Origin: Onthophagus taurus
Taxonomy: Eukaryota > Arthropoda > Insecta > Coleoptera > Scarabaeidae
NCBI RefSeq assembly: GCF_036711975.1
Contig: NC_091971.1
Coordinates: 6,827,501-6,891,500 of the forward strand
Direction: 5' to 3'
Length of the DNA stretch: 64,000 nucleotides
Shown: positions 36,763-64,000 of the stretch, piece by piece
Position numbering within the stretch: position 1 is the first letter of the stretch
Layout of the letters: every line of letters begins with the position of its first letter
The notes under the pieces: model-generated
Seen by the model: only the letters and a program-made list of their open reading frames with translations
Databases searched by the model: none
Told to the model about the DNA's origin: nothing
Made by a program: the position numbers and the translations under genes

Positions 36763-36841
36763 CAGCCAACTTTAATATTTTCAAAAATATTATTTTAATA
36801 ATCCTGTCAATCAATTTATTTTACATTTGGTTTGCAATAAA

Positions 36842-43032: not shown

Positions 43033-43920
43033 TTTGATTTTTAAAATAGTTTATGTATTTTTTAATTATAATATATAAGTTTACATAAGAATATTAAGTT
43101 ATTGAGTGAGGTGAGTAGATTAGATATCTTTGGTATTCCTCTTGAAGAAAGAGTTTAATGTTGTCTTTTAAAAATAGTACAAAAATATTGAGGTTAATTT
43201 GTGAAATTTGACGGTTAGTAAGGCTACGTTCAAATAATTTACTGTTAAAAACGAAGGATTAATTCAAAATGTGGTAATGAATCATATTTTATTATTTTTC
43301 ATTTTAAAACTCCGAATATCTTAATATCAATTAAAAATGAATGGGTTTTATATCGATAATCGATTTTAAAACGATTTAGTAGATGATTAGTGAGGTTAAT
43401 TTTTTCTAAAACGTCAAATTTGACATATATGCTTTTTATACAGTCGATTTTTTGTTTATAATCGAAATGTAAGGTCAAAGAAGTATTTATTATGTAATTT
43501 TTTGCAGTGATGGACACAATTTTTCCTCATATCTTGCAACCGCTTCGGATTTTCGGGCTTCGAGTTACTTATGTCTTCTGGGTTAACTGGTGTATGAAAA
43601 TGGGGAGTGTTACTTAGTTCACCCTCAATTGGTACAGATAATGCTTCGGTAAGTACATTTTTTACATCTTTGAAATGGTTGAATCGTGATCCACGCCTTT
43701 TTTAAGAAGTGACTTTCGGTAATGTCGAATGTGTACTTGGAAGTTGAAAAATAAAAATATAACTCGGTAGAGGTTACATATAATTTTTAGATTGACAGTT
43801 CAAATAGGGTGTACATAACCTCACTGATTAGTTGGTGATGTTAAAAATTAGTGTAGAATAATCAAAAAGATTAATAAAATTAACCAAGCTTAATATATTA
43901 AAGGATACATTTAAAACCTG
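43033..43920. other. intergenic region between TRPC copy 2 and the esterase cluster
   Basis: AT-rich. From about 43800 it is homologous to the 3' flank of esterase B (near 46590-46830), marking the edge of the esterase duplication. No gene is seen. Confidence 0.45.
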
Positions 43921-46127
43921 TTAATAAGTATCATAAGGTCTGTTTCCATAAGTATTGTACCAATATGTCCATTTATCCAAATACATCTTTTCGGGGTTCA
44001 CACTTTGATTGTAAACAACAAATTCTTCACCTATATCAAGGTATGAATAATCGTTTGCTTGAAAACTTGGAGTCCATGTAATGTTAAATTCATTAGGAGT
44101 TGGATTTCTAAAAAACATTGATTAGAAAATGTTGAAATAAAAAATGTAGTAAAATTAATTACCCGGATTTAATAAATTGAGACCATAAATTAACGACTTT
44201 ATTTGAAACGGCTTTTTGAGCGGCAGTTAATTTACTGTCGTAAAAGAAATATGGTAATTCTCCGGTGTGAGCAACACCTAAAAGAATATTTAGTACATCT
44301 TGAATTAAATTATGAACTTTTTGTTACCTTGAGTGGAATTTCCATTATAAGAAAATCTGTATAAATAAACTTGTGGTGTCCATTTCGAGTAAAGCTCAAC
44401 GTATTTCAGTATGGGTCGAACAAATTCATCGTGGCTAATATACTGTAATAAAATTAAAGACAATCAAATTTAAATAATTTATAAGATCCAAAATAAAATT
44501 TTATTTTGGTAGTTCCATTAACTGTAACTGTTATCATTCCATTTTCTACATAAGTTTGTTGTATTTCATTGTCAACTTTATTCTTCTGGGTATCGTTTAC
44601 GTTCATATCCAACGGAACTAGTCTACCGGGATTGAAATCATATGTTAATAGGATGAATGGAGGTAATCCAACAACTAAATTCAAAAGTTTTAATTTTATA
44701 TTTTTTAAGGAATAAATTTAATAAACCATCGTTAAATCCTTCTCCTTCCTCAGAGTTATATCCAATAATAATTGGAACTTTTGTGAAATTACCGCTGTTT
44801 AGTTGCTCGTAACTTTTATAAGAGAAAAGTTCTGTTGGATTGGATGTTTCAATAACCGGAGCGTAAACTAATCCATTTAAAGGATCATTAAGTAAAATCT
44901 AAAAACAAAAAAATTAAATCCAACAATGATACATATAGAACCTTAATTACAGAATTCTTAGAAAGCGAAGCGAATGAATACAGAAGAGTAGGAGCAACTT
45001 GTTTCATCCTTATCATAGCTTCAGTTTTATTAGTTCCAAAATATAATATTTCAGATGCTAATAACCAAAAATTTCGTTCGGCAGTTCTTGATAAAGCCCA
45101 AGGACACAAACTATTTCCACTATGCATAATAGCTTGATGAAACAATCCCTTAGTAACTGGCGATTGTATTAAATAAGCTACAGAAGCACCTCCGGTACTT
45201 TCACCCATAATTGTAACATTTTTTGGATTTCCCCCAAAATAACCAATGTTTTCTTGAACCCATTCCAAAGCCATCGCTTGATCTTTTAATCCCATATTAC
45301 CCGGAACCACATCATCACCAGATGATAAAAATCCAAAAACGCCTAAACGATAATTTAAGGTGACCACAACCAGGTTTTGATCGATGAAGTTGTCGGGAGC
45401 GCGAGATTCATAGTTTCCATCGCCGTAATAAAATCCACCACCATGAATCCAAACTAAAACTGCAAGCTTTGATGTTAAGTTGGGGCTATAAACGTTTAAA
45501 TAGAGACAATCTTCGTTGCCCTTTGTTGAAGATTCAATCGGTGCTGTCGAGCTTTGGATGCAAATGTTTCTTTGATAAGTTGCTGAGTAGTTGCCTTCTA
45601 ATACATATTTTTGAGGTGGCTAAAAACAGAAAATATTAAATTTAATGTAGTATATTTTAAAAGGTAATACTAAAAATTGGCAATAGATGGTGGCATTTTC
45701 ATTATTTAAATTAATTGAAATATAGTTTATTTACCTCAAATCTTAAATCTCCAACAGGTGGTTTAGCATAAGGAATTCCTTGAAACCCGAAATAACGAGT
45801 ATCTTTTCCAGTATTAGTCTTATTAATAACCCCTTCAATTTGTCGATTATCCCCCAAGTTAACTGAAATGGTCCCCTAAAAACTCATAAACATCTTATCT
45901 GAATTATAATAATTACAAAAAAGATTTACTTGAATTCGTTTACTTTTCACTCTTTTATTAAAATGACTCCCAAGTATTGCTTGATGATGTTTTTTATGAT
46001 TCTTATTAGAATGTTTTTCTTTATGATTATATTCATGTTTCTTCTTATGCTTTAAATGTTGATGTTCATCGCAAATTACAAAACATATTAAAACCGCAAT
46101 TAATAACGCAATTAAGACGTTCTTCAT
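43921..46127 (-). pseudogene. carboxylesterase A with a broken splice donor (probable pseudogene)
   Basis: Secreted alpha/beta-hydrolase of the carboxylesterase family, a close tandem copy of esterase B. Exons: 45930-46127, 45735-45875, 44951-45619, 44727-44898, 44505-44674, 44328-44442, 44163-44277 and 43921-44107. Signal peptide MKNVLIALLIAVLICFVIC, then a Lys/His-rich spacer, then catalytic parts GESTGGAS (nucleophile serine), NSEEGEGF (acid) and GVAHTGELPYFF (histidine). After exon 5 the donor is AT instead of GT (AAA|ATAAAA at 44504-44503; gene B has AAA|GTAAAA). Read-through adds a short hydrophobic tail and stops near 44454, before the catalytic histidine. Apart from that donor all frames are open, so the lesion is recent; rescue by a cryptic donor cannot be excluded. 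Confidence 0.85.
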
Positions 46128-46832
46128 TTTGTAGTTACACGTATTACTTTGAATAATGTTAACGTAGTTAAATATGTTTATATACCTAAAAAAAAAGAAT
46201 TTAAAAACTCTAAGAATTTCGTTAAAATATTTCATTTTTACAATTTGTTATCGATGTTTGCGTTGCAATTATTTAAATATTTCACATTTTGGGGGAAGTA
46301 CAAAGTAAAAATAAACATGTTTTTGTCATACTTTTTGTTATTATATTTGTAAAGTTATGTTTGGTTGTGTTTATAAATTATAAACCTTTATTATAATTGT
46401 CGTCGTGCTTGTCTTGCTATCATTTAATTTTCTTTTAAAAGCGCTAACTTCTTTTTCAATGATTTTTCATGTAACCAATTTTAATAGATATTACATTAAT
46501 AATTGATTTATATGGTGTATTTTAAACAAAAATGTTTATTTGTTGGGAAATAAAAGAAAATTGAAATTAAAATACCTCACTTATTATTTGGTGATGTAAA
46601 AACTGATGTAAAGTAATCAAAAAGATTAATAAAATTTTAAAAAATGAACGGATACTATCAATTAGCGTTGTCCAGGTCAATTAGAATTTAATTTATATTA
46701 AAAAAGCGGGGAAAGAAAATTTAAATCTGAAAATTGACAATAGATGGCGGCACTAATTTTAATACATATTTTATGTTACGTTTATTCAAAATTAACCAAA
46801 CTTAATATATTAAAGGATACATTTAAAACCTG
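46128..46832. other. 5' flank of esterase A and 3' flank of esterase B
   Basis: The first half resembles the 5' flank of esterase B (near 49100-49190, for example ACATTTTGGG followed by GAAGTACAAAGTA), as expected of a tandem duplication carrying its promoter. A stretch around 46650-46790 is absent from the equivalent flank of gene A and looks like an insertion or deletion difference. No gene is seen. Confidence 0.5.
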
Positions 46833-48982
46833 TTAATAAGTATCATAAGGTCTGTTTCCATAAGTATTGTACCAATATGTCCATTTATCCAAATACATCT
46901 TTTCGGGGTTCACACTTTGATTGTAAACAACAAATTCTTCACCTATGTCAAGGTATGAATAATCGTTTGCATGAAAACTTGGAGTCCAAGTAATGTTAAA
47001 TTCATTAGGAGTTGGATTTCTAAAAAACATTGATTAGAAAATGTTGAAATAAGAAATATAGTAAAATTAATTACCCGTATTTAATAAATTGAGACCATAA
47101 ATTAACGACTTTATTTGAAACTGCTTTTTGAGCCGCAGTTAATTTACTGTCGTAAAAGAAATATGGTAATTCTGCGGCGTGACCAACACCTAAAAGAATA
47201 ATTAGTACATCTTGAATGAAATTAGGAACTTTGTTGTTACCTTGAGTGGAATTTCCATTATAAGAAAATCTGTATAAGTAAACTTGTGATGTCCATTTCG
47301 AGTAAAGCTCAACGTATTTCACTGTGGGCCGGACAAATTGATCATGGCTGATGTACTGTAATAAAATTAAAAACAATCAAATTTAAATCATTTATAAGAT
47401 CCAAAATAAAATTTTACTTTGGTAGTTCCATTAACTGTAAATGTTATCGTTCCATTTCCTACATAGGTTTGTTTAATTTCATTGCCAACTTTATTCTTCT
47501 GGGTATTGTTTACGTTCATATCCAATGGAACTAGTCTACCGGGATTTAAATCATATGTTAATAGGTAGAATCGAAGTAATCCAACAACTAAAATCAAAAG
47601 TTTTAATATTAAATTTATTAAGAAATAATTTTAATAAACCATCGTTAAATCCTTCTCCTTCCTCAGAGTTATATCCAATAATAATCGGAACTTTTGTGAA
47701 ATTACCACTGTCTAGTTGCTCGTAGCTTTTATAAGAGAAAAATTCTGTTGGGTTAGATGTTTCAATAACCGGAGCGTAAACTAATCCATTTAAAGGATCA
47801 TTAAGTAAAATCTAAAATAAAAAAATTAAATCCAACAATGTTACATATAGAAACTTAATTACAGCATCCATAGAAAGCGAACCGAGTAAATACAGAACAG
47901 TAGGAGTAACTAGTTTCATCCTTCTCACAGCTTCAGTTTTATTAGTTCCAAAATATAATAATTTAGCTGCTAATAACCTAAAATTTTGTTGGGCTGTTCT
48001 TGATAAAGCCCAAGGACACAAACTGTTTCCACTATGCATAATTCCTTGATGAAACAATCCCTTAGTGACTGGCGATTGTACTAAATAAGCTACCGAACCA
48101 CCTCCGGCACTTTCACCCATAATGGTAACATTTTTTGGATTTCCCCCAAAATAACCAATGTATTCTTGAACCCATTCTAAAGCCATCGCTTGATCTTTTA
48201 ATCCCATATTACCCGGAACCACATTATCACCAGTTGATAAAAATCCAAAAACGCCTAAACGATAATTTAAGGTGACCACAACCAGGTTTTGATCGATGAA
48301 GTTGTCGGGGGCGCGAGATTCATAGTTTCCATCGCCGAAATAAAATCCACCACCATGAATCCAAACTAAAACTGCAAGCTTTGATGTTAAGTTGGGGCTA
48401 TAAACGTTTAAATAGAGACAATCTTCGCTGCCCTTTATTGAAAATCCAACTGGAGCTGCTGTGTTTTGGGTGCAAATGTTTCTTTGATTAGTTGCCGAGT
48501 AGTTGCCTTCTAACACGTATTTTTGAGGTGGCTAAAAACAGAAAATATTAAATTATTACTAATAAATAATTGAAATATAATTTATTTACCTCAAATCTTA
48601 AATCTCCAACAGGTGGTTTAGCATAAGGAATTCCTTGAAACCCGAAATAACGAGTATCTTTTCCAGTATTAGTCTTATTAATAACCCCTTCAATTTGTCG
48701 ATTACCCCCCAAGTTAACTGAAATGGTCCCCTAAAAACTCATAAACATCTTATCTGAATTATAATAATTACAAAAAAGATTTACTTGAACTCGTTTACTT
48801 TTCACTCTTTTATTAAAATGACTCCCAAGTATTGCTTGATGATGTTTTTTATGATTCTTATTAGAATGTTTTTCTTTATGATTATATTCATGTTTCTTCT
48901 TATGCTTTAAATGTTGATGTTCATCGCAAACTACAAAACATATTAAAGCCGCAATTAATAACGCAGTTAAGACGATCTTCAT
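46833..48982 (-). CDS. secreted carboxylesterase B (588 aa)
   Basis: Serine hydrolase of the type-B carboxylesterase family (ester hydrolysis of xenobiotics, pheromones or lipids; substrate unknown). Eight exons: 48785-48982, 48590-48730, 47863-48531, 47640-47811, 47418-47587, 47241-47355, 47075-47189 and 46833-47019, 588 residues. Signal peptide MKIVLTALLIAALICFVVC, an unusual Lys/His-rich spacer of about 45 residues (HLKHKKKHEYNHKEKHSNKN), then FQGIPYAKPPVGDLRF, EDCLYLNVY, oxyanion-hole region VWIHGGGF, nucleophile GESAGGGS (Ser254), acid in NSEEGEGF and histidine in GVGHAAELPYFF. The triad is complete. The GESAG elbow, not GQSAG, argues against juvenile hormone esterase. All splice sites are canonical. 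Confidence 0.92.
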
Positions 48983-49490
48983 TTTGTAGTTACAAGTATT
49001 ACTTTGAATAATATTAATGTGGTTAAATATGTTTATATACGTATTAAGAAATGAAAGAATTTAAGAACTCAAAGAATTTCTTTAACATATTTCACTTTTA
49101 CAATTTATTATCGATGTTTGCGTTGCAATTATTTAAATATTTCACATTTTGGGTGAAGTACAAAGTAAAAATAAACTTGTTTTTATTATACATTTTATGA
49201 AGATTTGTTGCTTGCTGTCAATATATAAGGTCAAGAAGATTGTTTAAATTCCTTACGTTTTAAAGTTATGTTTGGTTGTGTTTAGAAACCTTCTTTATTA
49301 TAATAGTCATCGTAAGTCCCTTGCTAGCATTCCTTCACTCTTGTTCAATGACTTTTTATATCAAGAAATTTAATAGTTAAATTTAATAATTGATTTTTAT
49401 GGTGTATTTTGAACAAAAATGTGTATTTGTTGGGAAATAAAAGAAAATTAAGATTAAAATATTTATTTATTAATATAAAATGAACTGGAA
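48983..49490. other. 5' flank of esterase B, 3' flank of esterase C
   Basis: AT-rich flank with homology to the 5' flank of gene A. No gene or transposon was recognised. Confidence 0.45.
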
Positions 49491-51449
49491 TTAAATTCCT
49501 TTTACTTTTCCACAAGTTTTATAAAGATTCTCCCACAAATCGAAGTCGTTTTTAAATGGTGCACCGTTCAAGTTATTTTTAGCAAGTTCAATGTCGATGT
49601 CTAAATATTCATGTTGATTTTTTGCGGTGCTTTTATTCCAATTTATGTTAAATTCGCTTTGTGTTGGAGTTGGATTTCTGAAAAACAAACATTAAATTAA
49701 AAATTTAAATTTAGGAGATAAATATTAACAAACCCAGTTTTCATAAAATTACTCCATAAAGAAACGATGTTTTTAGAAACTTTTTGTTCCTCAACTGTTA
49801 GAGGTTCTCTTATTGTAACTAAAGGATACGTTGGGAATAAATATCTTAATTCATCCGTATGGCCAGCACCTACACAAAAAGTTATTTTAGATTTATTTTC
49901 GAGTTGGATTAAAACGTTACCTGTAGCAGTTTTGTTTCTGACATAAGAAAATCGATATAAATAAACATTTTGGTTACATTTCGAATACAACTTTGAGTAC
50001 TCAACGGCTGTTTTCATAAATAAAATATCGCTCACATACTAAAAATGAAACTTATTAATATTTATAGAAGCAAAATTTTTATTTTTACCCGAATAATCGG
50101 TTGCTTTTCGTTAACGAAGCTTCCATCTCTCCCCGCATAATGATCTTTAATTTTTTTCCCAGTTTCTTTCGGGTCACATCTTCCTTTAACATCCATATCT
50201 TTAGCTACTAAAGTCTCAGGATTCACATCGAAATTTATATATGTATATCTTTGATTGTCTAAAACTAAAAATTAAGACGAGAATAAAATTAAAATTATAT
50301 TTTAATCAATTTTACCGTCTTCGTAAGTTAAAGATTCTTCAGAATTAAACCCGATTATAATCGGAACGGATTCAAAATTGCATTTTTGTACTTGCTCGTA
50401 TGGTGGTTGGGTTATAACCCCTAATTTTGAAGTTTCCTTTTCTAAGACGGCCCCAAATAAACTTTCATCGAATAAATCGGCGCGAAGTTTCTCGGTAAGA
50501 ACGATCGAGTAAAGATGTAGTGAAGAAAAATCGACCGTTTTTAATTTGTTGATGATTTCTTGATTATTTCCATTAACCCCGAAAAATTCCCCGAGAAGTT
50601 TTAAAGCATTTCTCATTTTTTCTGGCCTAACTAACCCGTTTATTGGAGTCCAACTTTGTAGGATACCCCTTTTAAATAATCCTTGAGCTGATTTTGATTG
50701 GATTAAATAACCGACGGATCCAGCCCCAGAACTTTCTCCCATTATTGTAACTTCAGATGGGTTTCCCCCGAAAAATTCAATGTTTTCTTTGATCCATTTT
50801 AATGCAAAAATCGTATCTTTTAGCCCCATATTTCCAGGGATGATTTCATCCCCTGTGCTTAAAAAGCCAAAAACTCCTAACCTGTAGTTAATGTTGACAA
50901 CAACCATATCTTTATCTAAGAAATATTCGGGGCTATAATAATTTTTATTTCCACTTCCGAAGACGTAACTTCCCCCGTGAATCCACACCATAACCGGTTT
51001 TAAATTTTTATTGGATTTCGATCTGGTGTAAACGTTCAAATATAGACAATCTTCACGCCCACTAATTGGAATGTAAAACCCGGGGAAAGCTTGCACGCAT
51101 TCATTTCTTTCGTAAGTTGCATTCCAAAGTTCATCATTCCAAGAAAATTCTTGAGGGGGTTCAAATCTTAATTGATTTAAAGGTGGTTTTGCATAAGGAA
51201 TTCCTTGGAACGAAAAATATTTAACCCCGGTTTCAGTTTGATCATTTTTTCCGATCACGCGTCCTTTAGTTGTTTGAACGATTAAACTTTCTTCTTGCTA
51301 TGTAAAAACATAAATAATAATTTATTTTTGTGTTATATATAAATACAAACCCGTTTGGAATGCTGATGATATCCATAACAATCGGAAATTGTTGAAATGG
51401 CTAATAAGAAAATTACAACTTGAGCTTGTTTTGTTAGAGACACCAACAT
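49491..51449 (-). CDS. secreted carboxylesterase C (563 aa)
   Basis: More diverged member of the cluster with six exons: 51351-51449, 50316-51297, 50089-50258, 49921-50038, 49734-49869 and 49491-49677, 563 residues. Signal peptide with core QVVIFLLAISTISDC; there is no Lys/His spacer. Catalytic landmarks: FQGIPYAKPPLNQLRF, EDCLYLNVYT, VWIHGGSYVFGSG, nucleophile GESSGAGS, acid in GFNSEESLTYED and histidine in GAGHTDELRYLF. Exon 2 is a fusion of what are three exons in genes A and B, so intron loss or gain separates C from A/B. The C-terminal exon is clearly homologous to that of A and B (NPTPTQSEFNINW against NPTPNEFNITW). Confidence 0.9.
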
Positions 51450-51810: not shown

Positions 51811-52470
51811 ACAGTGGCGGACAAAAGTCTACATACAGCATTGAATTATGAGGTTCTAAAACAGCACGCAGGCGTTCTGCTTCTGCTGTTATTTCATCCC
51901 AAGATTCGACTAACGCTAAGATTTCAGTGTTTTCGCATCTGTGATGTTGTGCTGCCGGATCTTACGTTCCAAAGGCTTCCAAACATATTCGATTGGATTT
52001 AAATCCGGCATCTGAAGAGGTGTATTCAACTGCCTGGGTGCATAATATAGCAACCAATGTTTGATAAGGTTTGCGGTATGCTTAGGTTCATTGTCTTGCT
52101 GGAATATCCAGCGATCCTCGAAGGCTAAGCTTTCTACCGATGGGTTAAAATTTTGTTCTAAAATACTTTTATATTTATACCGATCCATAATTCCATCAAT
52201 GAATGCCAGTTTTCTTACAGCAGATGCTCCTATCGCTCTCCGAACCATGACACTACCTCAGCCATGCTTTACAGTTGGTACCAAATTTTTAACTCCATCG
52301 CCGTGTTTCGTTTCCTCTAAATTTTTGCCCGACCATCACTTCCAAAAAGATTGTACGTCGACTCGTCAATAAACAAAACCCTGGATCAAATTGTAGTCCC
52401 AGACGGCGATTCTTTTCTGAAATCAGCGGTTCTCTTTGGGGTGTCCAGCTAAGACACTCTTTGTACGATT
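51811..52470 (-). pseudogene. Tc1-like transposon relic
   Basis: The low-coordinate end reads ACAGTGGCGGACAAAAGTCT (from about 51810), a typical Tc1-family terminus. Reading on the minus strand, the DDE domain is recognisable: VLFIDESTYNLFGSDG near 52380-52320, then two stops, then RWIFQQDNEPKHTA, LQMPDLNPIEYVWKPLERKI and a C-terminal tail. In-frame stops and the missing N-terminal part make it inactive. It lies between the minus-strand and plus-strand esterase groups. Confidence 0.85.
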
Positions 52471-52800
52471 CTTGGATGTACAGACTAATTAGACACAGTC
52501 TAATTAATAGTCTTTTAATAGGGTGCTAATATCTCTTTGCTATCGAATGAATCAGTCTCATTGTAATTTTTGATGATGGTCTAGACAAAAGCTATTTTAA
52601 ATGTGGTAAAACCATAAAAAAAATTCAAGTATTTTTTCGTTTTTAATTCATAAATTTTAGGGTGTAATTTACGTTGGTAGATTATAACTCTATAAACAAT
52701 GGGTTCATTCGGTTTTACGATACCACTTTAAATTTGTTTCTGTCTCATATTATCGTTTTTACGTTAATTGTTAAACTCTGTAAATATAAATGTGATTTTA
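52471..52800. other. upstream region of esterase D
   Basis: AT-rich. The last 35 bases (from about 52767, TTGTTAAACTCTGT) are nearly identical to those before esterase E (from about 55619), so the duplication begins just upstream of the start codon. The rest shows no feature. Confidence 0.45.
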
Positions 52801-54909
52801 ATGTCTACTTCAGTAATCATTTTTAGTTTTTTATGTCTTCTCTCAGTAATTAATGGTTATGTGGTATCCACATCGGTAGGTGATATAAACGGGAAGTATG
52901 AGGAAACGATTTCGAAAGGAACTCCTCATCACGCGTTTTTGGGAATCCCTTACTCTCAACCTCCCATCGGATCAAAACGATTTAAAGTAAATTAATTTTT
53001 TAAATTAAATTCATTAATTAACTGTTATTTTAGCCACCACGAAAGGTGAAAAATTTTACTACGATATGGGACGCTACTTATTATAAAAGTAGTTGTGTAC
53101 AATTTCATTGGGAAAAAACTCTTTCGTGGACGGGTGAAGAAGATTGTTTATTTTTAGATATTTTAACAACAGCGGTAAATTCACCAACTCAATCACTTGA
53201 TTAATTCTAATTTTAACGTTAAGTTTTATCATAACGAATCAAATTTGGCTGTTATGGTTTGGATTCATGGCGGGTTCTTTTTCCGTGGGGATTCCCACAG
53301 TTCCAGTTATAACCTCGATTATTTCCTTGATGAACACATCGTGAGCATTAAATTGAATTATCGATTAGGATTTTTGGGTACTCCAAAAAAATGTTGTATA
53401 CATTTTTAATCGATTAAAAATAAATAAAAACTTAAAGGTTTTTACCACGGCAAGAAAAACATTTTTGGAAATATGGGTATTAAAGACCAATTGATGGCTT
53501 TAAAATGGATCAAAGAAAATATTAAATATTTCGGTGGTGATCCGAAAAAAATAACGATTATGGGCGAAAGCGCAGGAGCTGCTTGTGTTTCTTACTTGAT
53601 TCAAACTCCTTTGAGTAAAGGGCTTTTTCAACGAGCCATTATGCAAAGTGGTAATACATTAACAGGGTGGGCAATTGCAAGAAAAGCTGCATCCATCACG
53701 AAAATTATGTTAAAATTAAATAAGATGTTGATTAAGTTTCTCGATAACGTGTCTGATAGAATTTCAGGATTTTTTTCGGTGATTTTACCTGGTTTTAAAA
53801 TGGCTTTTGACGTAAGTTCACGTTTCGTTACAGTTTTAATGAATACATTCGATGTTTTTTGCCGGGCATTAATAATTCTAATAACTTAATATTAAGCTCT
53901 TTCTTTCTTGGAAGTTGAGTTAAAGGAATCTTTTTAGACCGCTTTAGATCCGCTGCAAGGTTTATTATATGCTCCAGTTAAAGAAAAAGAGAACCCAACA
54001 GCGATTCATTTGAATGATACCGATAAGATTTTAGATAAATGCGAAAATGGGAGTTTTGTTCCGATAATGATTGGTTTTAATAAAAACGAAGGGAGGACGA
54101 TAACTGATCATAATATTGGTAATTTCTTTTAACTTTGTTAAAATTTATAAATTAATCGTCTTATTATTTTTTTAGTTACTAAATTTCTTTCGATAGTTTT
54201 AAATAATATATATTCTTTATTTTCGTCGAGTTTGTTGCCTAAAGATCTGAAAAAATTAGCGAACTGTTCCCATTTGGGAACAGAAATTAAAGAGTACTAT
54301 AAATTATCGTCTTATAATGACACAGCTAAAGTATTGAATTAACAAAAAGTTATTGCAGTTTATAATAAATGTGTAGTTCTCATTTTAGTTTATTGGTGAC
54401 GTATTTTTTGTGGAACCAACAGTTCAATACGTTAAAATGTTTTCTAAATGCAACAAGGTTTATTTTTATAGATTTTCCTATAAAGGTATAAACAAAATGA
54501 AATAAAATTTCAATAATGGATTTGCTTATATTTTTAGACGCCGGACATGGAGACGATTTGCATTTTCTATTCGCAAATTTCTTTTACAAATTAGAAACGT
54601 ATAAAGAACGATTGGTTTCTAAGAAAATGATTAAGATTTGGAGTCATTTTATAAAATACGGGTTCGCATTCTTAAACGCTACAATTATATTTTGACATTG
54701 TTTATTTTAGTTATCCAAGAAAAAAAAATAATAGTTTAACTTGGCCCGAAAGCACGCACGACAACAATTACGTTTACATGGATATTAGCCGAAAATTAAC
54801 TTTAACCAATTTATCATCGAGCCCTCATTCTGAAACATTAACTTTTTGGAAAAAAATTTATAAGAAATGTGGATTAGGTCATTTAAAAGTAATACAAAAT
54901 AATTATTAG
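52801..54909 (+). CDS. secreted carboxylesterase D (536 aa)
   Basis: Plus-strand carboxylesterase with nine exons: 52801-52986, 53034-53174, 53224-53377, 53438-53811, 53938-54118, 54176-54330, 54389-54485, 54538-54661 and 54711-54909, 536 residues. Signal peptide [20 protein letters not shown]. Landmarks: [24 protein letters not shown], oxyanion region [11 protein letters not shown], nucleophile GESAGAAC, acid in GFNKNEGRT and histidine in [12 protein letters not shown], so the triad is complete. The exon-3 acceptor is AAG, weaker than the others. An unusual amphipathic insert follows the nucleophile region ([20 protein letters not shown]). It is a near twin of gene E, and more distant from A, B and C. 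Confidence 0.9.
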
Positions 54910-55652
54910 ATAAATAAATTGTTGTTAAATCACTTAAGGATGGAATTTTGCCCTGTCCACCAACTTTGAAAATTAACTTCGGTGATTCCTCTTTTATATA
55001 CTAATTTTAATTAGCGTAATTTGCATTGTGTACTTCTATCGTTTCAATCAAGAGAAACCATTCTTTGTTTTGTAGAATAGGAAAGTAGGTAAAAAGTTAC
55101 CTTTTAGTTACAAACTTTCAATTGATATTACTCCAAATTAAATCTTTAATTATGAATTTAGTTGAATGGTTTCCTTCAGTATGGGTATAATAATACATAA
55201 TATACTGAGAGGAACAATATAAATAAATTGTATTTTCGACAAAATCACCGAAGTTTGAGTTTTGAAAACAAATTTAAGGTTTTTGGTATAGATAAGTTGA
55301 TTTAGTTACTTTCAAAAGTTCACCGATTCTGAAGTAGATGGCAGGATTGAATTTTACCCTATGATAAATATTATATTGTATGTCGTATAGGTCGTATACG
55401 GAGTATATGATACCACCGATCTGGCAACGTCACTTTGATTCCTTCGATCGCTTACTCTCCCAACATCCAACATAAAATAATCTTTATTTATGTGGGATTA
55501 CTATATTTGTGCACCCAACAAAACATTATATTAAAAATATACCGATTTGTGCCTTATCCATTTAAATAGACGATTCGCATACTTGTCATGAGTTTTGACA
55601 GCTGCAATTCCGCCCTTAATTGTTAAACTCTGTATATATAAATGTGATTTTA
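54910..55652. repeat. inter-esterase spacer with a probable degenerate MITE
   Basis: Inverted partners can be seen between about 54940-54990 (GGAATTTTGCCCTGTCCACC, ACTTCGGTGATT) and about 55240-55375 (AATCACCGAAGTTTG, GATTGAATTTTACCC). This suggests a MITE of about 430 bases inserted after gene D. The rest, 55380-55618, is not recognised. The copy boundary upstream of gene E begins near 55619. Confidence 0.4.
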
Positions 55653-57776
55653 ATGTCAACTTCAGTAATCATTTTTAGTTTTTTATGTCTTCTATCAGTA
55701 ATTAATGGTCATCTGGTATCCACATCGGTAGGTGATATAAACGGGAAGTATGAGGAAACGATTTCGAAAGGAACTCCTCATCACGCGTTTTTGGGAATCC
55801 CTTATTCTCAACCTCCCATCGGATCAAGACGATTTAAAGTAAATTAATTTTTTGAATTAAATTTATTAATTAACTGTTATTTTAGCCACCACAAAAGGTG
55901 CAAAATTTTACCACGATATGGGACGCTACTTATTATAAAAGCAGTTGTGTACAATTTAGTTGGGAAAAAACTCTTTCGTGGATGGGTAAAGAAGATTGTT
56001 TATTTTTAGATATTTTAACAACAGCGGTAAATTCGCCAACTCACTCACTTTATTAATTCTAATTTTAACATTAAGTTTTATCATAACGAATCAAATTTGG
56101 CTGTTATGGTTTGGATTCATGGCGGGTTCTTTTTTTCCGGGGATTCCCACAGTTCCAGTTATAACCTCGATTATTTCGTTGATGAACACATCGTGAGCAT
56201 TAAATTGAATTATCGATTAGGATTTTTAGGTACTCAAAAAAAAATTATACATTTTTAATCGATTAAAAATAAAAAAAACTTAAAGGTTTTTACCACAGCA
56301 AAAAAATTTTTGGAAATATGGGTATTAAAGACCAATTGATAGCTTTAAAATGGATCAAAAAAAATATTAAATATTTCGGTGGTGATCCGAAAAAAATAAC
56401 GATTATGGGCGAAAGCGCTGGAGCTGTTTGCGTTTCTTACTTGATTCAAACTCCTTTAAGTAAAGGGCTTTTTCAACGAGCCATTATGCAAAGTGGTAAT
56501 ACATTAACAGGGTGGGCAATTGCAAGAAAACCCTCATCCATCACGAAAATGATGTTAAAATTAAATAAGATGTTGATTAAGTTTGTCGATAAGGTGTCTG
56601 ATGGAGTTTCAGGATTTTTTTCGGTTTTTTTACCTGGTTTAAAAATGGCTTTTGACGTAAGTTAATGTTTCAATATTCGCGCGCTATAAAATATCTTAAT
56701 TTTTAATAAATACAAACATTCGATGTTTTTTACCGGGAATTAATAATTCTAATAACTTAATATTAAGCTCTTTTTTTCTTGGAAGTTGAGTTAAAGGAAT
56801 CTTTTTAGACCGCTTTAGATCCGCTGCAAGGTTTATTATATGCACCAGTTAAAGAAAAAGAGAACCCAACAGCGATTCATTTGAATGATACTTATAAGAT
56901 TTTAGATAAATGCGAAAATGGGAGTTTTGTTCCCATAATGATTGGTTTTAATAAAAACGAAGGGAGGACGATAACAGAACATAATATTGGTAATTTTTTT
57001 AACTAAGTTAAAATTTATAAATTAATCGTCTTATTTTTTTAGTTACTAAATTTCTTTCGATAGTTTTAAATAATATATATTCTATATTTTCGTCGAGTTT
57101 GTTGCCTAAAGATGTGCAAAAATTAGCAAACTGCTCCGATTTGGGAACAGAAATTAAAAAGTACTATAAATTATCGTCTTATAATGACACAGCTAAAGTA
57201 TTGAATTAACAAAAAGTTATTGCAGTTTATAATAAATATGTAGTTCTCATTTTAGTTTATAGGTGACGTATTTTTTGTCGAACCAACAGTTCAATACGTT
57301 AAAATGTTTTCTAAATGCAACAAGGTTTATTTTTATAGATTCTCCTATAATGGTATAAACGAAATGAAATAAAATTTCAATAATTGATTTGTTTATATTT
57401 GTAGACGCCGGACACGGAGACGATTTGTATTTTCTATTCGCAAATTTCTTTTACAAATTAATAACGTATAAAGAACGATTGGTTTCTAAGAAAATGGTTA
57501 AGATTTGGAGTCATTTTATAAAATACGGGTTCGCATTCTTAAACGCTTCAATTATATTTTGACGTTTTTTATTTTAGTTATCCAAGAAAAAAAAATAAAA
57601 GTTTAACTTGGCCCGAAAGCGCTCACGACAACAATTACGTTTACATGGATATTAGCCGGAAATTAAGTTTAACCAATTTATCATCGAGCCCCCATTCTGA
57701 AACATTAACTTTTTGGAAAAAAATTTATAAGAAATGTGGATTAGGTCATTTAAAAGTAATACAAAATAATTATTAG
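55653..57776 (+). CDS. secreted carboxylesterase E (535 aa)
   Basis: Tandem duplicate of gene D, 2852 bases downstream, with the same nine-exon structure: 55653-55838, 55886-56026, 56076-56229, 56286-56656, 56809-56989, 57043-57197, 57256-57352, 57405-57528 and 57578-57776, 535 residues. All splice sites are canonical and the frame is open; exon 4 lacks exactly one codon relative to D. Signal peptide [20 protein letters not shown]. Oxyanion region [11 protein letters not shown], nucleophile GESAGAVC, acid in NKNEGRT and histidine in [12 protein letters not shown] are all present. The substrate is unknown. Very high similarity extends through the introns, so the duplication is recent or homogenised by conversion. 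Confidence 0.9.
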
Positions 57777-58128
57777 ATAAATAAATTGTTGTTAAAAAAA
57801 ATAAGGTTATGTAACGTTTTGTGTAAATTCATGAAACTCAAATTTAAAGAAAAAAACAAATCATTACAATTTTTTTAAAATTCGCTAAAAATGAATTAAT
57901 TCCATGATTTAAGCTTTTCTGTTTAAACTACATCTTCATTTTCTTTGAAAAAGATATTATACTTTTATGAATCAAAAAGAGCTTCTAATTTGACACATCA
58001 AAATGAAGTTAGGTTGCTTAAACAAAAAAATCGTTAGGACTGGTGTTTAAAATTTAATCAAGACACCCATCATCTTGACATTATTTAAATTGTCAAAGTC
58101 AGAAATAACATTTACTTTTTAGTTTAAA
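57777..58128. promoter_or_regulatory. upstream region of the multi-repeat CNBD channel gene
   Basis: 352 AT-rich bases between the esterase E stop and the channel ATG, containing the esterase 3' end and the channel promoter or 5' UTR. No distinctive motif is seen. Confidence 0.4.
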
Positions 58129-61100
58129 ATGACTTCAAGATCTGGAAGATCACTTCTTATTGATGCCGAACAATCTCCAGATGTAAACGAACGTAAACTA
58201 AAAAACATCATCTTTCTGCCTTTCAATAAAAAATGGGAACTCTTCGTCTCAATTACGATCCTTCTCAATTTTATGTTCAACATTTTCATCATAACCTACG
58301 ACATCCGGGTAACAATAAAATGGTGGATATTTTATTACGTTTGCGAGATAATCTTTTTTATAAACACTTGCGCCTTGGTTCTTCATCGAGTATTTACATT
58401 GGTACGAAAAACGAGACATCATCGGAAGAAAAATTCATTTTTAATTGGAATTTGTTTACTGACGGTTCTTCCGGTACAGGAAGGTTATTACATGATTTCA
58501 GCGTTTACTTGGTCTACGGAAAAAGAACCATCAGTGGAGAGATTTATTGGGTTTAAGTGTTGTTTACGAATAATTTATGCTATGGTTTATTTTAACCAGG
58601 TTAAGAACCAAGTTGGAAAAAACGATCTATTTTTTGTTTTGTATACACACATTTTCATTGGGATTTGTGTAACGGCGATTGGAACGTGTGCTTGGCATAT
58701 AAGTTATAATTTTTCTGGGGATACCTCGAGTACTTGGAGAGATCGATTGCAGTTTTTATATATTGACCCTAATGTAGCTAATCATATGTTGGCGATTGGG
58801 TATCATACCAACGTAGCCTTTTTTACTGGATCCTCTAATGGGGTTATTTACGGCGAAAATAATTACGAAAAAATTTTAATAATTATAATGATGTCAATTG
58901 GGTTTATTTACCAACACGTTGTTTTAGCCGGAGAATTATTAGCGACGTTTCTTCGAAAGCAACGCCATAAATTTACTTTTTCATCACAATTAAAAAAAAT
59001 TATTCACCTTTTAGACGATTGGCGCGTTAAAAGGGACGTTAAACGACAAACGATTGATTATTACAAAGTTTATTGGGAGCGAAGAAGCGGAATCGGCTCA
59101 ATGCCCTCCGCTTTTAATTTATTACCATTTTCTTTAAGGAAGGAAATCACCGTGGATATTTATTGGGAGGCGTTTCGGCATTCAAAAATTTTCTCCGAAT
59201 TGGATACCCCGTTTAAGAGATCGCTTAGTTTAAAAATGAAAAGCGAATTTTATTTGTCTGGTGATTATTTATATCGCGTGGGGGAACCTAAAAACAAAAT
59301 GATTTATATCTTATCTGGAACGGTTCAAATTCTTTCCGAGGAAGATCACGACACCCCCGTTTTAAATCTTTGTGGTGGGACGATTTTAGGGGAATTATCC
59401 TGCTTAACGATTCATAAAAGTCGAGTTAATGTCCGGTGTAATACGTATTGTGAGATACAATCGTTGGATATTAGGTCGTTTTATTCGGTTTTGATGGAAT
59501 ATAGGCGACTGAATGAGAAATTTACGAAGGAGGAGCTAAAAAGGATTGATTATGCTCGTTGGGCCTTAAGTGATGATGTTCCAAAAGTTGATTATACAAA
59601 AACAACTCTTCCAATTAATTTGCCGACTTTAACTAAATTAAAGCGGCAGTGGAACTTGTTGATGAAAATGCACAAAAGTAAAAGACCCCAAGAACAATTG
59701 TGGTTAAAATTAGATAAAAGTTTTACTTCGAATCATTTAGACGCTTTGGTGATTTGTGATACCCAAGAATCTGATGAGCACAAAATTTGTATTAAAGATA
59801 CTTGCCCGGTTATTATGCGGGAAGAATCGAGTTTCCGAAATTTTCTTGAAAACTTAGTTTTATTGGCGGTTTTTTTCGAGTTATTGATTATCCCATATAG
59901 CATATTTTTTAGGCGAGAAATCACTTATTTCACTTGGGTGGTAATGGTTCCGATTGATTTGATTTATTATTTCGACATTTTCGTACAATTATCAACAACG
60001 ATTAAAGTATCCCCGGAAGTCACTTTAACGCAATCTAAAGATATCATTTTATATCGATTCAAACAAGTCGGATTTTACATCGATATCTTAGCGGGGATCC
60101 CGCTACACGCTGGATTTTTACTGGTTGGGATTGAAAAAAGAACGGCTTTAATCGCGTACTGCTTCAGGATTTTAAAAGCTAAAAAGATTTACGCCAAAAT
60201 TTATAAATTAGAAAAACAACTTTTCTTGCATATTCTAACAGTTAATTCGATTAAGTACACAACAATGACGATTATTTTCACCTACATTTTTTGTTGCATC
60301 CTTTATGCGATTGCTTGTTATTACCCGGAGTGCGTCGAAGAGAGTTGGTACAAAATCAGTTCAACTTTAAGCGAATTCAAAGAAAGCATCCTTTTCGAAA
60401 TTGTTTATTTCTTCTCAGTATCTTTAGTTCTAAATTATCACGTCACCGATTATCTTTTAGCCACGGTGAATGAAATAATAATCCACATCATCATTATCTT
60501 AATAGCTTACACAATACATAGTTTTATGTACGCCGAAATGACGTCATCAGCGTGGATGTCTTACAAAGAAGGGTTAGAACACCAAGATGAAACAGCCATG
60601 TTTAAAATAATCGTTAAAAAACGAAACGTTGGGCAAGAATTAAAGATGAGGTTGTTAAATATTTTGGAATTCCACTGGGTTTTTAATCAGGGTGCGGAAA
60701 TAATTGGTGCAAATGGAATTTTGAAGGAAGCTTCGGAGAAAATTCGATCCGATGTGATTAGCGATCGCATGATTCATTGTTTGCAAAAAGTCCCTTTATT
60801 TAAAAATTGCCCACCGACTTTATTATCTAAACTAGCAATGGCTGCGGAAGTCGTCGTTTTACCCCCAGACACTTACATCCAAAACGTCGATGTGATGTCC
60901 CACAACATTTACGTGGTACTCCGAGGTTATTGCCAAATGATGTCGAAACTTCCCGGAGACAATGAGCGAAATGCAAAAATCATTTTAAAACACGGCGATA
61001 TGTTAGCTGTTATAGAAACGTTACATCGCGTAAGAATGTTTGGATTAATCACAACTGTAACGGCCGTTGAATTACTTTCAGTGTCTTACGATAATTTTGT

Positions 61101-64000
61101 TGATATTTTTCAAAGTTTTCAAACTGAAGATTTGATTTTACAGAATGCTTTGGACGGACATATGGAAACTTTTCAAACAATTTTGATGCGAAAAGGGTGT
61201 CGATTGCCGGAAATGAGAGCGCCCGGTGTGGCTTTGGGAAAAGTTGAAACGTTTAGTTTTAAAGTAATCATGGGAAAAAGGCATAAATCGCATCTTAAAG
61301 ATGAATACATGAAACCGTTTCTTTTACTGGGAAGATGGAAATGGATTAGATTCTTTTTAATGAAATCAACGATAAATCCAAGCGGATTAAAATATAAAAT
61401 TTATGAAACGTGCCGATGCTGCTTCATACTTTTTGACATCTTCACGATAATCTGCTCGTTAAGTATTCTTAGTACTAACGTTACATTGATACAAATTTTA
61501 GTTAGTTTTGGGCATGTTTTTGGATGTATCGATCAATACATTAGGATGCATTGTCAGTATTATAACCAAAAAGGAATTTTGGTTACTCATCCATTACACA
61601 CTCTTTATTACTACCTTTCAACGGCATTTATTACCGATTTAACCGCAAATTTACCGCTGAATCTGATTCATATACGAGACTTTTTTCATAACAACAAATA
61701 CGAAACCGAACTATTAATAATTTTGGCGATACGATGTTTATCGTTGTATCGACCTTATAAAGGTCTTTCGTACCTTCAACACAGATATTCTTGGTCCGGA
61801 TTTATTCTACGACTCAAAATAATTATGGTCATCGTAATAATAATTTCAATCTTTTCGATTGCTTTGATGTCGGTTGCTTGTGAATTTCACGAGAATGGAA
61901 TAACTAGCTGTACGGGAGGATCATTTCGAATTCATTCGATATTTAATGGTTATACTTCACCATCCCAAGTTTTCGTACAAACGCTTTATATCACTACGAC
62001 AATGTATTGTCAAAGAACGATTGATTTATTTTATTACACCCACGAAGATGATATCACCAAATTCATTATTTTATTACTGCTTTGTCAAATTATTAGAATG
62101 ATTTTATTGGCTATTTATACAAGTGCAGGGGTAAGTATATACTTTTTATGATGAGAAAATATTGATTTCGGAGCACTTTTTATTGAAATTATAATGAATT
62201 TAGAGAAACCACTTGCCTTACAACAACTTGTTTGATTGAGGAAAAGTGGATAAAACCTGGTATAAAAACAGCTCCAATTTTATTAAGCATCATTTCTCAT
62301 TCAACTTAAGAAATTTTGTACTAAGAATACAATTTTCTTCTTTTGCAGATTGGTGGAAATGTAAACTTATCAAATCATCAAGCTCGAATGAGACAATTTC
62401 TAACATTCGCTAAATCGGTTGATTTGGATGAAAATATCACCGAAGAAATGGTAAACCATTACGAATATGTTTGGCGTGAAACTCTGGGTACAAACATAAC
62501 GGCTCTTTCAAAAAAGTTTAATTTATATCTTCGTACTCAATTTTTTTCTTTTCTCTACGAAGAAACGCTAAGAAGAACGAATATTTTCTGTAATGCCCCG
62601 GACGCGATTGTTCAACATTTTCTCCCAATGCTCGAAGAACAACATTACAAAAAAGGTGCTGAAATCATCCGGTGCAACGACGTTCAAGGTAAAATGTTTA
62701 TTGTTCATCGGGGAGCCATAAATATTACAGTGGCGAATACGGAAATTTGTGAGATGGAAATGGGTGGAATTTTTGGTTGTTTCCAAAAAGGTGGTATTAC
62801 AAGACAAACGATTAATGTTACTGCAAAAAGTCATACGATAGTTCTTACAGTCGATAGTGTTAAATTTCACGAATTAATGTCCGAATGGGACGATCGAAAT
62901 ATTGAGACGTTTTTAAAACAACTTAAAGTAATTCATACTGAATTTATCGAGGTTTCCTCAAAAGTCACCCAACGTTTACTTACCCGGGAAAAATTACAAG
63001 TTTTACCCTTCGAAGATGTAACCATATACGACCCCATCATAGCAACTGTTAGCAAATACATCGAAGAGGATTCAAAATCTTTTCGGATCTTCGTATACAT
63101 CTTAAACGTCCATATAGCATCAATATCCTCTGTAGGATTTTTAGCTTACGCTTTTATAGACGCGGGAAAATCACCTCATTTCACTTTTTATATCGTATTA
63201 TATTTGTTGGATTTATTATTTTTCATCAAAATTTTTTTTGGATTTCATTTACCGTTTGTTGATTTAATAACTGGGTTTAAAGTGTTAAACGCGAAGATAA
63301 TCGCGAAGAGATACGCGAAAAAAAATTTTGTGGTTGACATGGCTTCTTTATTCCCTTTCGAAATTATTTCTTGGAATTTATATCCAAACTGGATTAAAGT
63401 GTTTACTTTAAATAGAACGTTAAGGATATTGTACCTTTATCGTTATTATCAATCGTGCATTAATAAATTAACGGTTAGTGTGCATTTAAGATGGTCATTT
63501 TTGGTTTATTCTACTTTATTCAAATTGCAATTTATGCATAGTATTTGGTGAGAAATGTTTCATTTGGTTGTGAGTTGTTGTAATTGATTTTTTTAGGGTT
63601 GTTGTCGCTTGTCTTAATCCGAGATGTTATGAGACTTCTAATGTTATTGGGAGACCAAATGGGACTGTTATAGCAAGCGATGTTACTTCATCAACGATTT
63701 TGGGATACACTTACATCATAAATTTATTTACTAAGAATGGGTTAAAGGATTCAATTCCAACCTCAACGTTACAACTTCTTATAACGGCAATTATAGCTAT
63801 TTATTCGCATATTATTGTTGCTCATCTCACTAGTAGTTACGCCAACATCACTATCATTGAAAACAATACTATGGATAGATATTATTATAAAATTAATCAC
63901 ATAAAATTGTATTTAAAGGTAAATTTTTTAAATTAAAAAAGTTAGGTTTTATATAAATATTTTTAGGGTAGACAATTATCACCAGCAATTTTTAAAAAGG
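58129..64000 (+). CDS. giant multi-repeat CNG/HCN-like channel protein, at least four repeats, runs off the window
   Basis: Membrane protein made of concatenated cyclic-nucleotide-gated/HCN-like units. Exons: 58129-62130 (1334 codons in one exon), 62349-63547, 63597-63918 and 63967 onward; about 1850 residues lie inside the window and the protein continues. Repeat I: helices about residues 36-275 and a CNBD about 350-460 that keeps GELSCL and RVNVRC. Repeat II: helices about 570-805, C-linker FHWVFNQG, CNBD about 885-995 lacking the GE and Arg signature. Repeat III: helices about 1090-1334, CNBD in exon 2 (GGIFGCFQ in place of GE). Repeat IV: helices starting at KSFRIFVYILNVHI, S4-like LNRTLRILYLYRYY, a pore loop in exon 3 and a C-linker at the window edge. 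None of the pore loops has GYG or GFG. Known CNG/HCN subunits have one repeat and form tetramers; four in one chain suggests a pseudotetramer. Ion conduction is doubtful; a sensor or scaffold role is possible. Confidence 0.88.

What the first reader, a model, noticed from the sequence alone, without database searches (positions are those of the whole stretch)
58129..64000. Four CNG/HCN-like repeats fused in one polypeptide, a pseudotetrameric CNBD channel-like protein
Seen: one gene encodes at least four successive blocks of channel-type helices, with CNBD-like beta-rolls after blocks I to III inside the window and a C-linker starting after block IV. Known: CNG, HCN and EAG subunits carry one such block and assemble as tetramers, whereas NaV and CaV channels carry four blocks in one chain, without CNBDs. 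Inference: this is an independent concatenation of the CNBD-channel unit, by analogy with NaV/CaV. I know of no named animal family with this architecture.
Basis: partly seen in the sequence, partly recalled or inferred. Interest (0 to 1): 0.88.

Follow-up and report, generated by a model that had tools for sequence, protein, structure and literature searches.

The report
Divergent four-in-one CNBD channel-like protein
This gene, probably from an insect, joins four copies of an ion-channel unit into one long protein; that layout is already known from CNGK sperm channels, but this one is extremely diverged and has lost the usual potassium-selecting motif.

Summary
Four exons (58129-62130, 62349-63547, 63597-63918, 63967-edge) give 1852 codons without a stop; the three introns fall inside channel blocks, so separate genes are very unlikely. 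Solved-structure searches recover CNBD-channel homology in every block: I P-loop to CNBD (EAG1, HCN4, SthK), II S1-CNBD (HCN4), III S1-CNBD (CNGA1), IV S2-S4 (EAG1). Pfam Ion_trans is found in none; CNBD clears Pfam's cut-off only in I. Block I's S1-S5 rests on weak evidence. CNBD IV lies outside the window.

The claim that no animal family has this architecture is wrong: CNGK/tetraKCNG (sea urchin, ascidian, fish, choanoflagellate) has four 6TM-CNBD repeats in one chain. But CNGK carries G(Y/F)G in its pore; here G(Y/F)G occurs nowhere in 1852 residues, and the P-loops of II and III contain no glycine. The conserved phosphate-binding arginine is missing in register in three of three complete CNBDs. 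CNGK descent versus independent fusion is unresolved.

Best reading: a CNGK-like pseudotetramer, strongly diverged, probably neither K+-selective nor conventionally cyclic-nucleotide-gated. New variant of a known kind. Expression, distribution and function are untested.

The parts
58129..62130 (+). Exon 1: blocks I and II complete, membrane part of block III (residues 1-1334)
   Evidence: single open frame, donor GGG|GTAAGT
62131..62348 (+). Intron 1, 218 bp, phase 0, between S6 and C-linker of block III
   Evidence: GTAAGT...TTTTGCAG
62349..63547 (+). Exon 2: C-linker and CNBD III, S1 to (part of) S5 of block IV
   Evidence: open frame; homology
63597..63918 (+). Exon 3: pore, S6 and start of C-linker of block IV
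   Evidence: open frame, 49-bp and 48-bp introns on either side
63967..64000 (+). Exon 4, start only; gene runs off the window
58219..58953 (+). Block I membrane part (residues 31-275)
   Evidence: hydropathy; weak profile match; P-loop and S6 within the EAG1 alignment; Foldseek on a low-confidence model; residues 1-278 alone find nothing in PDB
58792..58806 (+). Block I candidate filter AIGYH (HCN4 CIGYG register; needs a 12-residue insert). Rival gapless register against EAG1 puts TGSSNG (residues 233-238) on TSVGFG
58969..59553 (+). C-linker and CNBD I
   Evidence: Pfam PF00027 8.2e-11; PDB 9.3e-17; hhalign E 1.8e-22
59824..60543 (+). Block II membrane part; candidate filter VLNYH 60427-60441, no Gly in P-loop
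60544..61158 (+). C-linker and CNBD II
   Evidence: Pfam 4.6e-4, below cut-off; hhalign E 1.5e-15
61369..62130 (+). Block III membrane part; P-loop TTTMYCQRTIDL, candidate filter stretch 61999-62028, no Gly
62355..62921 (+). C-linker and CNBD III
   Evidence: Pfam 6.4e-6 at best, just below cut-off; hhalign E 3.6e-13
63057..63861 (+). Block IV membrane part (interrupted by intron 63548-63596); candidate filter KNGLK 63733-63747
63862..64000 (+). Start of C-linker IV (interrupted by intron 63919-63966)
   Evidence: E 0.0023, probability 12.5%

Best explanation
A single gene encodes a pseudotetrameric CNBD-channel-like protein with the CNGK architecture: four 6TM blocks, each (for IV, as far as the window shows) followed by a C-linker/CNBD, so that one chain should supply all four quarters of a pore and its intracellular gating ring. 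It is most likely a very fast-evolving descendant of the CNGK type (inferred, not shown). Because G(Y/F)G is missing from the chain (shown) and the phosphate-binding Arg is missing in register from three of three complete CNBDs (shown on one alignment), I infer that it is not a K+-selective, cGMP-gated channel. Its CNBDs probably serve as a ligand-independent or otherwise regulated gating ring, as in KCNH channels or zebrafish CNGK, and its pore is non-K+-selective or silent.
For: Uninterrupted 1334-codon exon with blocks I, II and III-membrane; the three introns lie within blocks. CNBD-channel homology in all four blocks. Same repeat unit and number as CNGK (passages). No G(Y/F)G in 1852 aa; no Gly in P-loops II and III. 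PBC Glu/Arg positions: I Glu and Ser; II Val and Met; III Cys and Gln; EAG1 also reads Ser at the Arg position in that alignment. [quoted passage not shown]
Against: No CNGK sequence could be compared. The 1~3 / 2~4 kinship reported for CNGK is not demonstrable here: CNBD I-III (z 13.7-17.5) and membrane II-IV (z 5.6-5.7) are the top sister pairs, but membrane I-III shows nothing (z 0.7-0.9), CNBD II-III also scores (z 5.0-5.1), and outgroups score higher for I, II, III (CNBD) and II, III, IV (membrane). PMC6259924 (passages) stresses near-identical, unspecialised repeats in CNGK, the opposite of this protein. An Arg does lie one residue beside the PBC position in each of the three CNBDs (I after, II and III before), so a register shift could restore it. 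AlphaFold models have mean pLDDT 52.5 and 41.6. Ion_trans was not found.
Confidence: 0.6

Rival explanations
1. Independent concatenation of a CNBD-channel unit, unrelated to CNGK.
For: Blocks are mutually undetectable by phmmer; apart from the membrane part of I, each part scores higher with at least one outgroup channel than with any sister block; the filters lack the CNGK signature.
Against: Parsimony: four-repeat CNGK is reported from animals and choanoflagellates, so the layout probably predates animals (inference). High divergence erases kinship, so the sister-block result is not positive evidence.
Confidence: 0.22
2. A non-conducting pseudo-channel: membrane scaffold or sensor, or a protein whose only ion path is through a voltage-sensor domain, as reported for HCNL1. 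It overlaps with the best explanation and differs only in pore activity.
For: No G(Y/F)G in the chain; HCNL1, an HCN-like channel with a CNBD, conducts protons through its VSD (abstract in the listing; passages).
Against: Non-GYG filters can conduct (the CNGA1 chain printed reads TTIGQT; that CNGA1 conducts is recalled); C-linker and CNBD I remain clearly recognisable.
Confidence: 0.4
3. A decaying pseudogene.
For: Eroded pore and CNBD motifs; block IV's codon use is not best in the true frame (0.047 against 0.063 in a reverse frame).
Against: 1852 codons without stop or frameshift and clean splice sites; the true frame scores best of six for blocks I, II and III, narrowly for I (0.080 against 0.059).
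Confidence: 0.06
4. Separate tandem genes or an assembly artefact.
For: None found.
Against: Blocks I, II and the membrane part of III share one open exon; introns split blocks III and IV; blocks are too different to be duplicated reads.
Confidence: 0.03

Closest known systems
CNGK / tetraKCNG channels (sea urchin, ascidian, zebrafish, choanoflagellate)
   Same: Four 6TM + C-linker + CNBD repeats in one polypeptide (CNBD IV here lies outside the window)
   Different: CNGK keeps GYG/GFG in the pore and is described as having near-identical repeats; here no G(Y/F)G, blocks mutually undetectable by phmmer, three of three complete CNBDs lack the phosphate-binding Arg in register
CNG, HCN and KCNH subunits; bacterial SthK
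   Same: Each block is homologous to one such subunit
   Different: These carry one block and assemble as tetramers
NaV / CaV / NALCN
   Same: Four 6TM blocks in one chain (analogy)
   Different: No C-linker/CNBD; the homology found here is to CNBD channels
[quoted passage not shown]
   Same: Concatenated 6TM-CNBD units; the dinoflagellate ones have reduced CNBDs
   Different: Two repeats, protists

Membership tests
CNGK / tetraKCNG | Four 6TM-CNBD repeats in one chain | tested here: inconclusive
   Four membrane blocks and three CNBDs found in one reading frame, block I's S1-S5 only weakly; CNBD IV and the stop codon lie beyond the window
CNGK / tetraKCNG | GYG or GFG in the pore (PMC4749565) | tested here: not met
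   Regex G[YF]G: 0 matches in 1852 aa; P-loops II and III have no Gly
CNGK / tetraKCNG | Four nearly identical, pseudo-symmetric repeats (PMC6259924) | tested here: not met
   phmmer among the four blocks finds only self matches at E up to 10
CNGK / tetraKCNG | Repeats 1~3 and 2~4 related (PMC7576140) | tested here: inconclusive
   Highest sister-pair scores are I-III (CNBD) and II-IV (membrane), but membrane I-III shows nothing, CNBD II-III also scores, outgroups score higher, and no fork involving the blocks is well supported (I, III and EAG1 together at 48/79)
CNGK / tetraKCNG | Third CNBD binds cGMP (sea urchin) | tested here: inconclusive
   CNBD III has Cys and Gln at the Glu and Arg positions; binding itself not testable
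CNGK / tetraKCNG | K+-selective conductance in sperm | not testable with these tools
   needs expression data and electrophysiology
CNG / HCN / KCNH subunit | One 6TM-CNBD block per chain | tested here: not met
   four membrane blocks in one frame
NaV / CaV | Four 6TM blocks of the NaV/CaV lineage, without CNBD | tested here: not met
   CNBD I above Pfam cut-off; no NaV/CaV among the solved-structure rows listed (60 of 130, 60 of 92, 60 of 103, 60 of 65, 15 of 15, 60 of 72), which are CNBD channels or cyclic-nucleotide-dependent kinase chains
Pfam Ion_trans | PF00520 match in each block | tested here: not met
   no match at E up to 10 in the 6 pieces or in the 2 spliced blocks (III, IV)

The most novel reading that the evidence does not exclude
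A pseudotetrameric CNBD channel, probably in an insect, has dismantled the carbonyl-lined G(Y/F)G filter in all four blocks and now lines its pore with four different side chains (in one of several possible registers H, H, Q and K at the last filter position), an asymmetric filter reached independently of NaV's DEKA ring, with the CNBD ring gating it without cyclic nucleotides.
Probability: 0.15. Interest if true: 0.8.

Novelty: new variant of a known kind. Interest (0 to 1): 0.5.

Why it matters
The passages read here place CNGK mainly in marine invertebrates, fish and choanoflagellates. A four-block CNBD protein in what looks like an insect, with the K+ signature and the CNBD ligand site eroded but the frame kept open, would be a natural case of a pseudotetramer changing or losing its ion selectivity, and a candidate reproductive or sensory channel in a group where the listings (several of them capped, open-licence papers only) showed me no report of one.

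Tried and rejected
Rejected: separate genes (introns fall inside blocks); assembly duplication (blocks mutually undetectable); novelty of the architecture itself (CNGK). Considered and dropped as evidence of CNGK descent: the I-III and II-IV pairing (z 13.9 and 5.6), because membrane I-III scores nothing and outgroups score higher. The trees of 8 and 7 rows are uninformative. Structure predictions were poor (mean pLDDT 52.5 and 41.6). Foldseek still ranked CNG/HCN chains first, but with TM-scores of 0.14-0.33 in the 50 rows listed each time, and the alignments given to AlphaFold contained bacterial CNBD channels, so I give it little weight; the alignments span 394-564 columns of an 819-residue model. 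Viral contigs: 8 and 13 candidate stretches, none a relative of exon 1 or exon 2. No genome is held for the window, so paralogues elsewhere and the rest of the gene could not be searched; within the window tblastn finds no convincing further copy. Rfam (gathering threshold) and tRNA scans of the window were empty. A note read block I's filter as GYH and the last-position ring as H-H-Q-K; on re-reading, block I has a rival gapless register (TGSSNG), block II a rival (YHVT), block III three registers, and block IV another GY pair (LGYT, residues 1769-1772), so only the register-free statements are relied on. Paper searches with loose term sets returned mostly unrelated work.
Full report
WHAT WAS CHECKED. 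The region 58129-64000 holds one long open frame and three further exons. The frame starts at ATG 58129 and is open to 62148 (1340 codons). At the window's base composition a stop is expected about every 13 codons, and 1340 open codons have a chance of about 1e-46; the five other frames over exon 1 contain 76 to 107 stops and no open run above 108 codons. A donor GGG|GTAAGT at 62130/62131 and an acceptor TTTTGCAG before 62349 keep the frame, as do two short introns (63548-63596 and 63919-63966). The joined frame is 1852 aa, without a stop, and still open at the window edge. The splice sites are read from sequence; no transcript was available.

ONE CHAIN. Exon 1 contains blocks I, II and the membrane half of block III. 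Intron 1 separates S6 of block III from its C-linker; intron 2 lies in the hydrophobic stretch taken as S5 of block IV; intron 3 lies in the C-linker of block IV. No block boundary coincides with a gene boundary. If intron 1 were retained, the protein would end after S6 of block III (stop at 62149-62151).

HOMOLOGY, BLOCK BY BLOCK. Block I: Pfam cNMP_binding 8.2e-11. With the whole exon 1 as query HCN4 scores 5.7e-21 over two stretches; the one in block I (end of S6 to CNBD) has 4.3e-15, and EAG1 aligns from the P-loop to the CNBD with 7.6e-14. Searched alone, residues 229-468 give 9.3e-17 to a prokaryotic CNG channel (5v4s) and 1.3e-16 to SthK. Residues 1-278, the membrane part, alone find nothing (0 matches up to E 10). 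Block II: a single alignment from S1 to CNBD with HCN4, 2.1e-12; Pfam CNBD 4.6e-4, below the curated cut-off. Block III: the spliced block aligns with CNGA1 from before S1 to the CNBD, 3.8e-08, though its best hits are CNBDs of cGMP-dependent protein kinase, 6.9e-10; its CNBD scores 26.5, 24.9 or 24.3 bits, by the piece scanned, against a cut-off of 27.5; its membrane part alone finds 0 matches. Block IV: S2-S4 with EAG1, 3.3e-04, and a longer stretch with KAT3, 0.0018. Profile comparison of the four membrane parts with a five-channel profile gave scores 16.7, 46.0, 26.3 and 43.0; the best of 20 shuffles each were 12.8, 8.6, 9.9 and 6.7. Profile comparison of the C-linker/CNBDs with eight channels gave E 1.8e-22, 1.5e-15 and 3.6e-13 for I-III, and 0.0023 (probability 12.5%) for the 30-residue start of IV. 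Pfam Ion_trans was found in none of the 6 pieces and neither of the 2 spliced blocks, at E up to 10.

CODING SIGNAL. Codon log-odds trained on six other ORFs of the window are highest in the true frame for blocks I (0.080, next 0.059), II (0.153, next 0.076) and III (0.088, next 0.038), but not for block IV (0.047, a reverse frame 0.063). The signal is thin; the open frame and homology carry the case.

THE PORES. G(Y/F)G occurs nowhere in the 1852 residues, and the P-loop stretches of blocks II and III contain no glycine (stretch limits set by me). Exact registers are uncertain. Block I reads HMLAIGYH, close to HCN4 HMLCIGYG, if a 12-residue insert follows, but the gapless EAG1 alignment puts TGSSNG on TSVGFG. 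Block II reads VLNYH or YHVT opposite the filter. Block III reads TMYCQ, QRTI or TIDL (my ungapped reading). Block IV reads KNGLK opposite TIGYG (the same register). The conclusion that none keeps the K+ signature does not depend on the register. S4 stretches carry 4, 7, 4 and 5 Lys/Arg (segment limits set by me).

THE CNBDs. On the alignment with HCN4, CNGA1, SthK, 5v4s, EAG1 and three bacterial channels, the phosphate-cassette Glu and Arg positions read Glu/Ser in I, Val/Met in II and Cys/Gln in III. An Arg lies one residue after that position in I and one before it in II and III, so a register shift is not excluded. EAG1 also reads Ser there in the same alignment. That the second Arg of RRTA is the phosphate-binding residue is recalled; PMC4749565 (passages) says that a highly conserved Arg is crucial and that it is replaced in repeat 2 of zebrafish CNGK. 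Cyclic-nucleotide binding by I-III is therefore doubtful, not excluded.

WHAT IT IS. CNGK channels (also tetraKCNG) are described as four 6TM-CNBD repeats in one pore subunit, found in marine invertebrates, fish and a choanoflagellate (passages of PMC7576140; PMC4749565; PMC8835908; PMC6259924). But the protein fails two features stated for CNGK: the GYG/GFG filter and near-identical repeats. I therefore do not file it as a CNGK channel; I call it CNGK-like in architecture.

DESCENT. PMC7576140 reports that repeats 1 and 3, and 2 and 4, of CNGK are closest (section read). Here the strongest sister pairs are CNBD I-III (z 13.9) and membrane II-IV (z 5.6) in 300 shuffles, which resembles the CNGK pattern; but membrane I-III shows nothing (z 0.8) and CNBD II-III also scores (z 5.4). 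Against outgroups (200 shuffles per ordered pair) CNBD I is nearer to HCN4 (z 30-40) than to III, CNBD II nearer to SthK (21-22) than to III (5), CNBD III somewhat nearer to SthK (19-21) than to I (14-17.5) but about level with HCN4 (14.5-16); membrane II is nearer to HCN4 and EAG1 (10-14) than to IV, membrane III nearer to EAG1 (9) than to II (2.5), membrane IV nearer to CNGA1 and EAG1 (8-13) than to II (5.6) though HCN4 (4) is below that. Membrane I is significant with nothing; its highest score is with block II (2). The pairing may only reflect which blocks are least eroded. Trees of 8 and 7 rows left the blocks unresolved; I, III and EAG1 fall together at 48/79. CNGK descent is favoured by parsimony only.

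HOW IT MOST LIKELY WORKS. Shown: four blocks, one frame, lost K+ signature, altered CNBD pockets. Inferred: the chain folds as a pseudotetramer with a non-selective or silent pore, and the CNBD ring acts without cyclic nucleotides. Precedents are zebrafish CNGK, gated by pH and not cyclic nucleotides (passages), and HCNL1, which passes protons through its voltage sensor (abstract in the listing; passages). A role in sperm is a guess from CNGK; nothing in the window bears on expression.

STRUCTURE. Two AlphaFold2 jobs with 5- and 4-row alignments gave mean pLDDT 52.5 (block I) and 41.6 (blocks II and III-membrane). Foldseek ranked CNG/HCN chains first for both, with low TM-scores. I treat this as consistent, not as proof.

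ORGANISM. No call names it.

LITERATURE LIMITS. Ten searches were made; those for CNGK with insect terms, pseudotetrameric CNG in insects, beetle channel repertoires and related term sets listed no paper whose title or shown abstract start reports a four-repeat CNBD protein in an insect. Several listings are capped: 15 of 65,824, 12 of 174, 10 of 4,007, 20 of 76. Of the 4 papers holding both CNGK and insect, I saw CNGK passages in 3 and only the listing of the fourth. The library holds open-licence papers only.

Noticed in passing
36836-39286 and 40549-43029 (+): Two tandem uninterrupted ORFs (817 and 827 aa) with ankyrin, TRP_2 and Ion_trans domains; copies 72% identical in DNA. The second is closer to TRPC4/5 chains (2e-113) than to TRP-gamma (7e-91) among solved structures. 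A second set of intron-poor channel genes near the CNBD gene.
   Followed up: partly
43876-46574 vs 46788-49461; 52764-54929 vs 55616-57796: Two recent tandem duplications (88.9% and 93.9% identity). Pfam COesterase was found in the two pieces scanned nearby (50305-51297 minus strand, 56273-56662 plus strand); the first pair was not scanned.
   Followed up: partly
51919-52257 (-): Fragment of a DDE_3 transposase (6.5e-7) beside the esterase genes.
   Followed up: no
4711-5712: Array of diverged repeats, 68-86% alike at several offsets, one pair inverted.
   Followed up: no
15414-15650 and 16554-16791: Inverted repeat of about 240 bp, 83% identical, downstream of an ORF with NF-X1-type zinc fingers (13574-14671).
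   Followed up: no
58112-58128: The ATG lies 6 bases after a TAG preceded by a T-rich stretch, which could be a splice acceptor, so an upstream non-coding or short coding exon is possible.
   Followed up: no
62131-62151: Retention of intron 1 would end the protein after S6 of block III, a possible truncated isoform.
   Followed up: no
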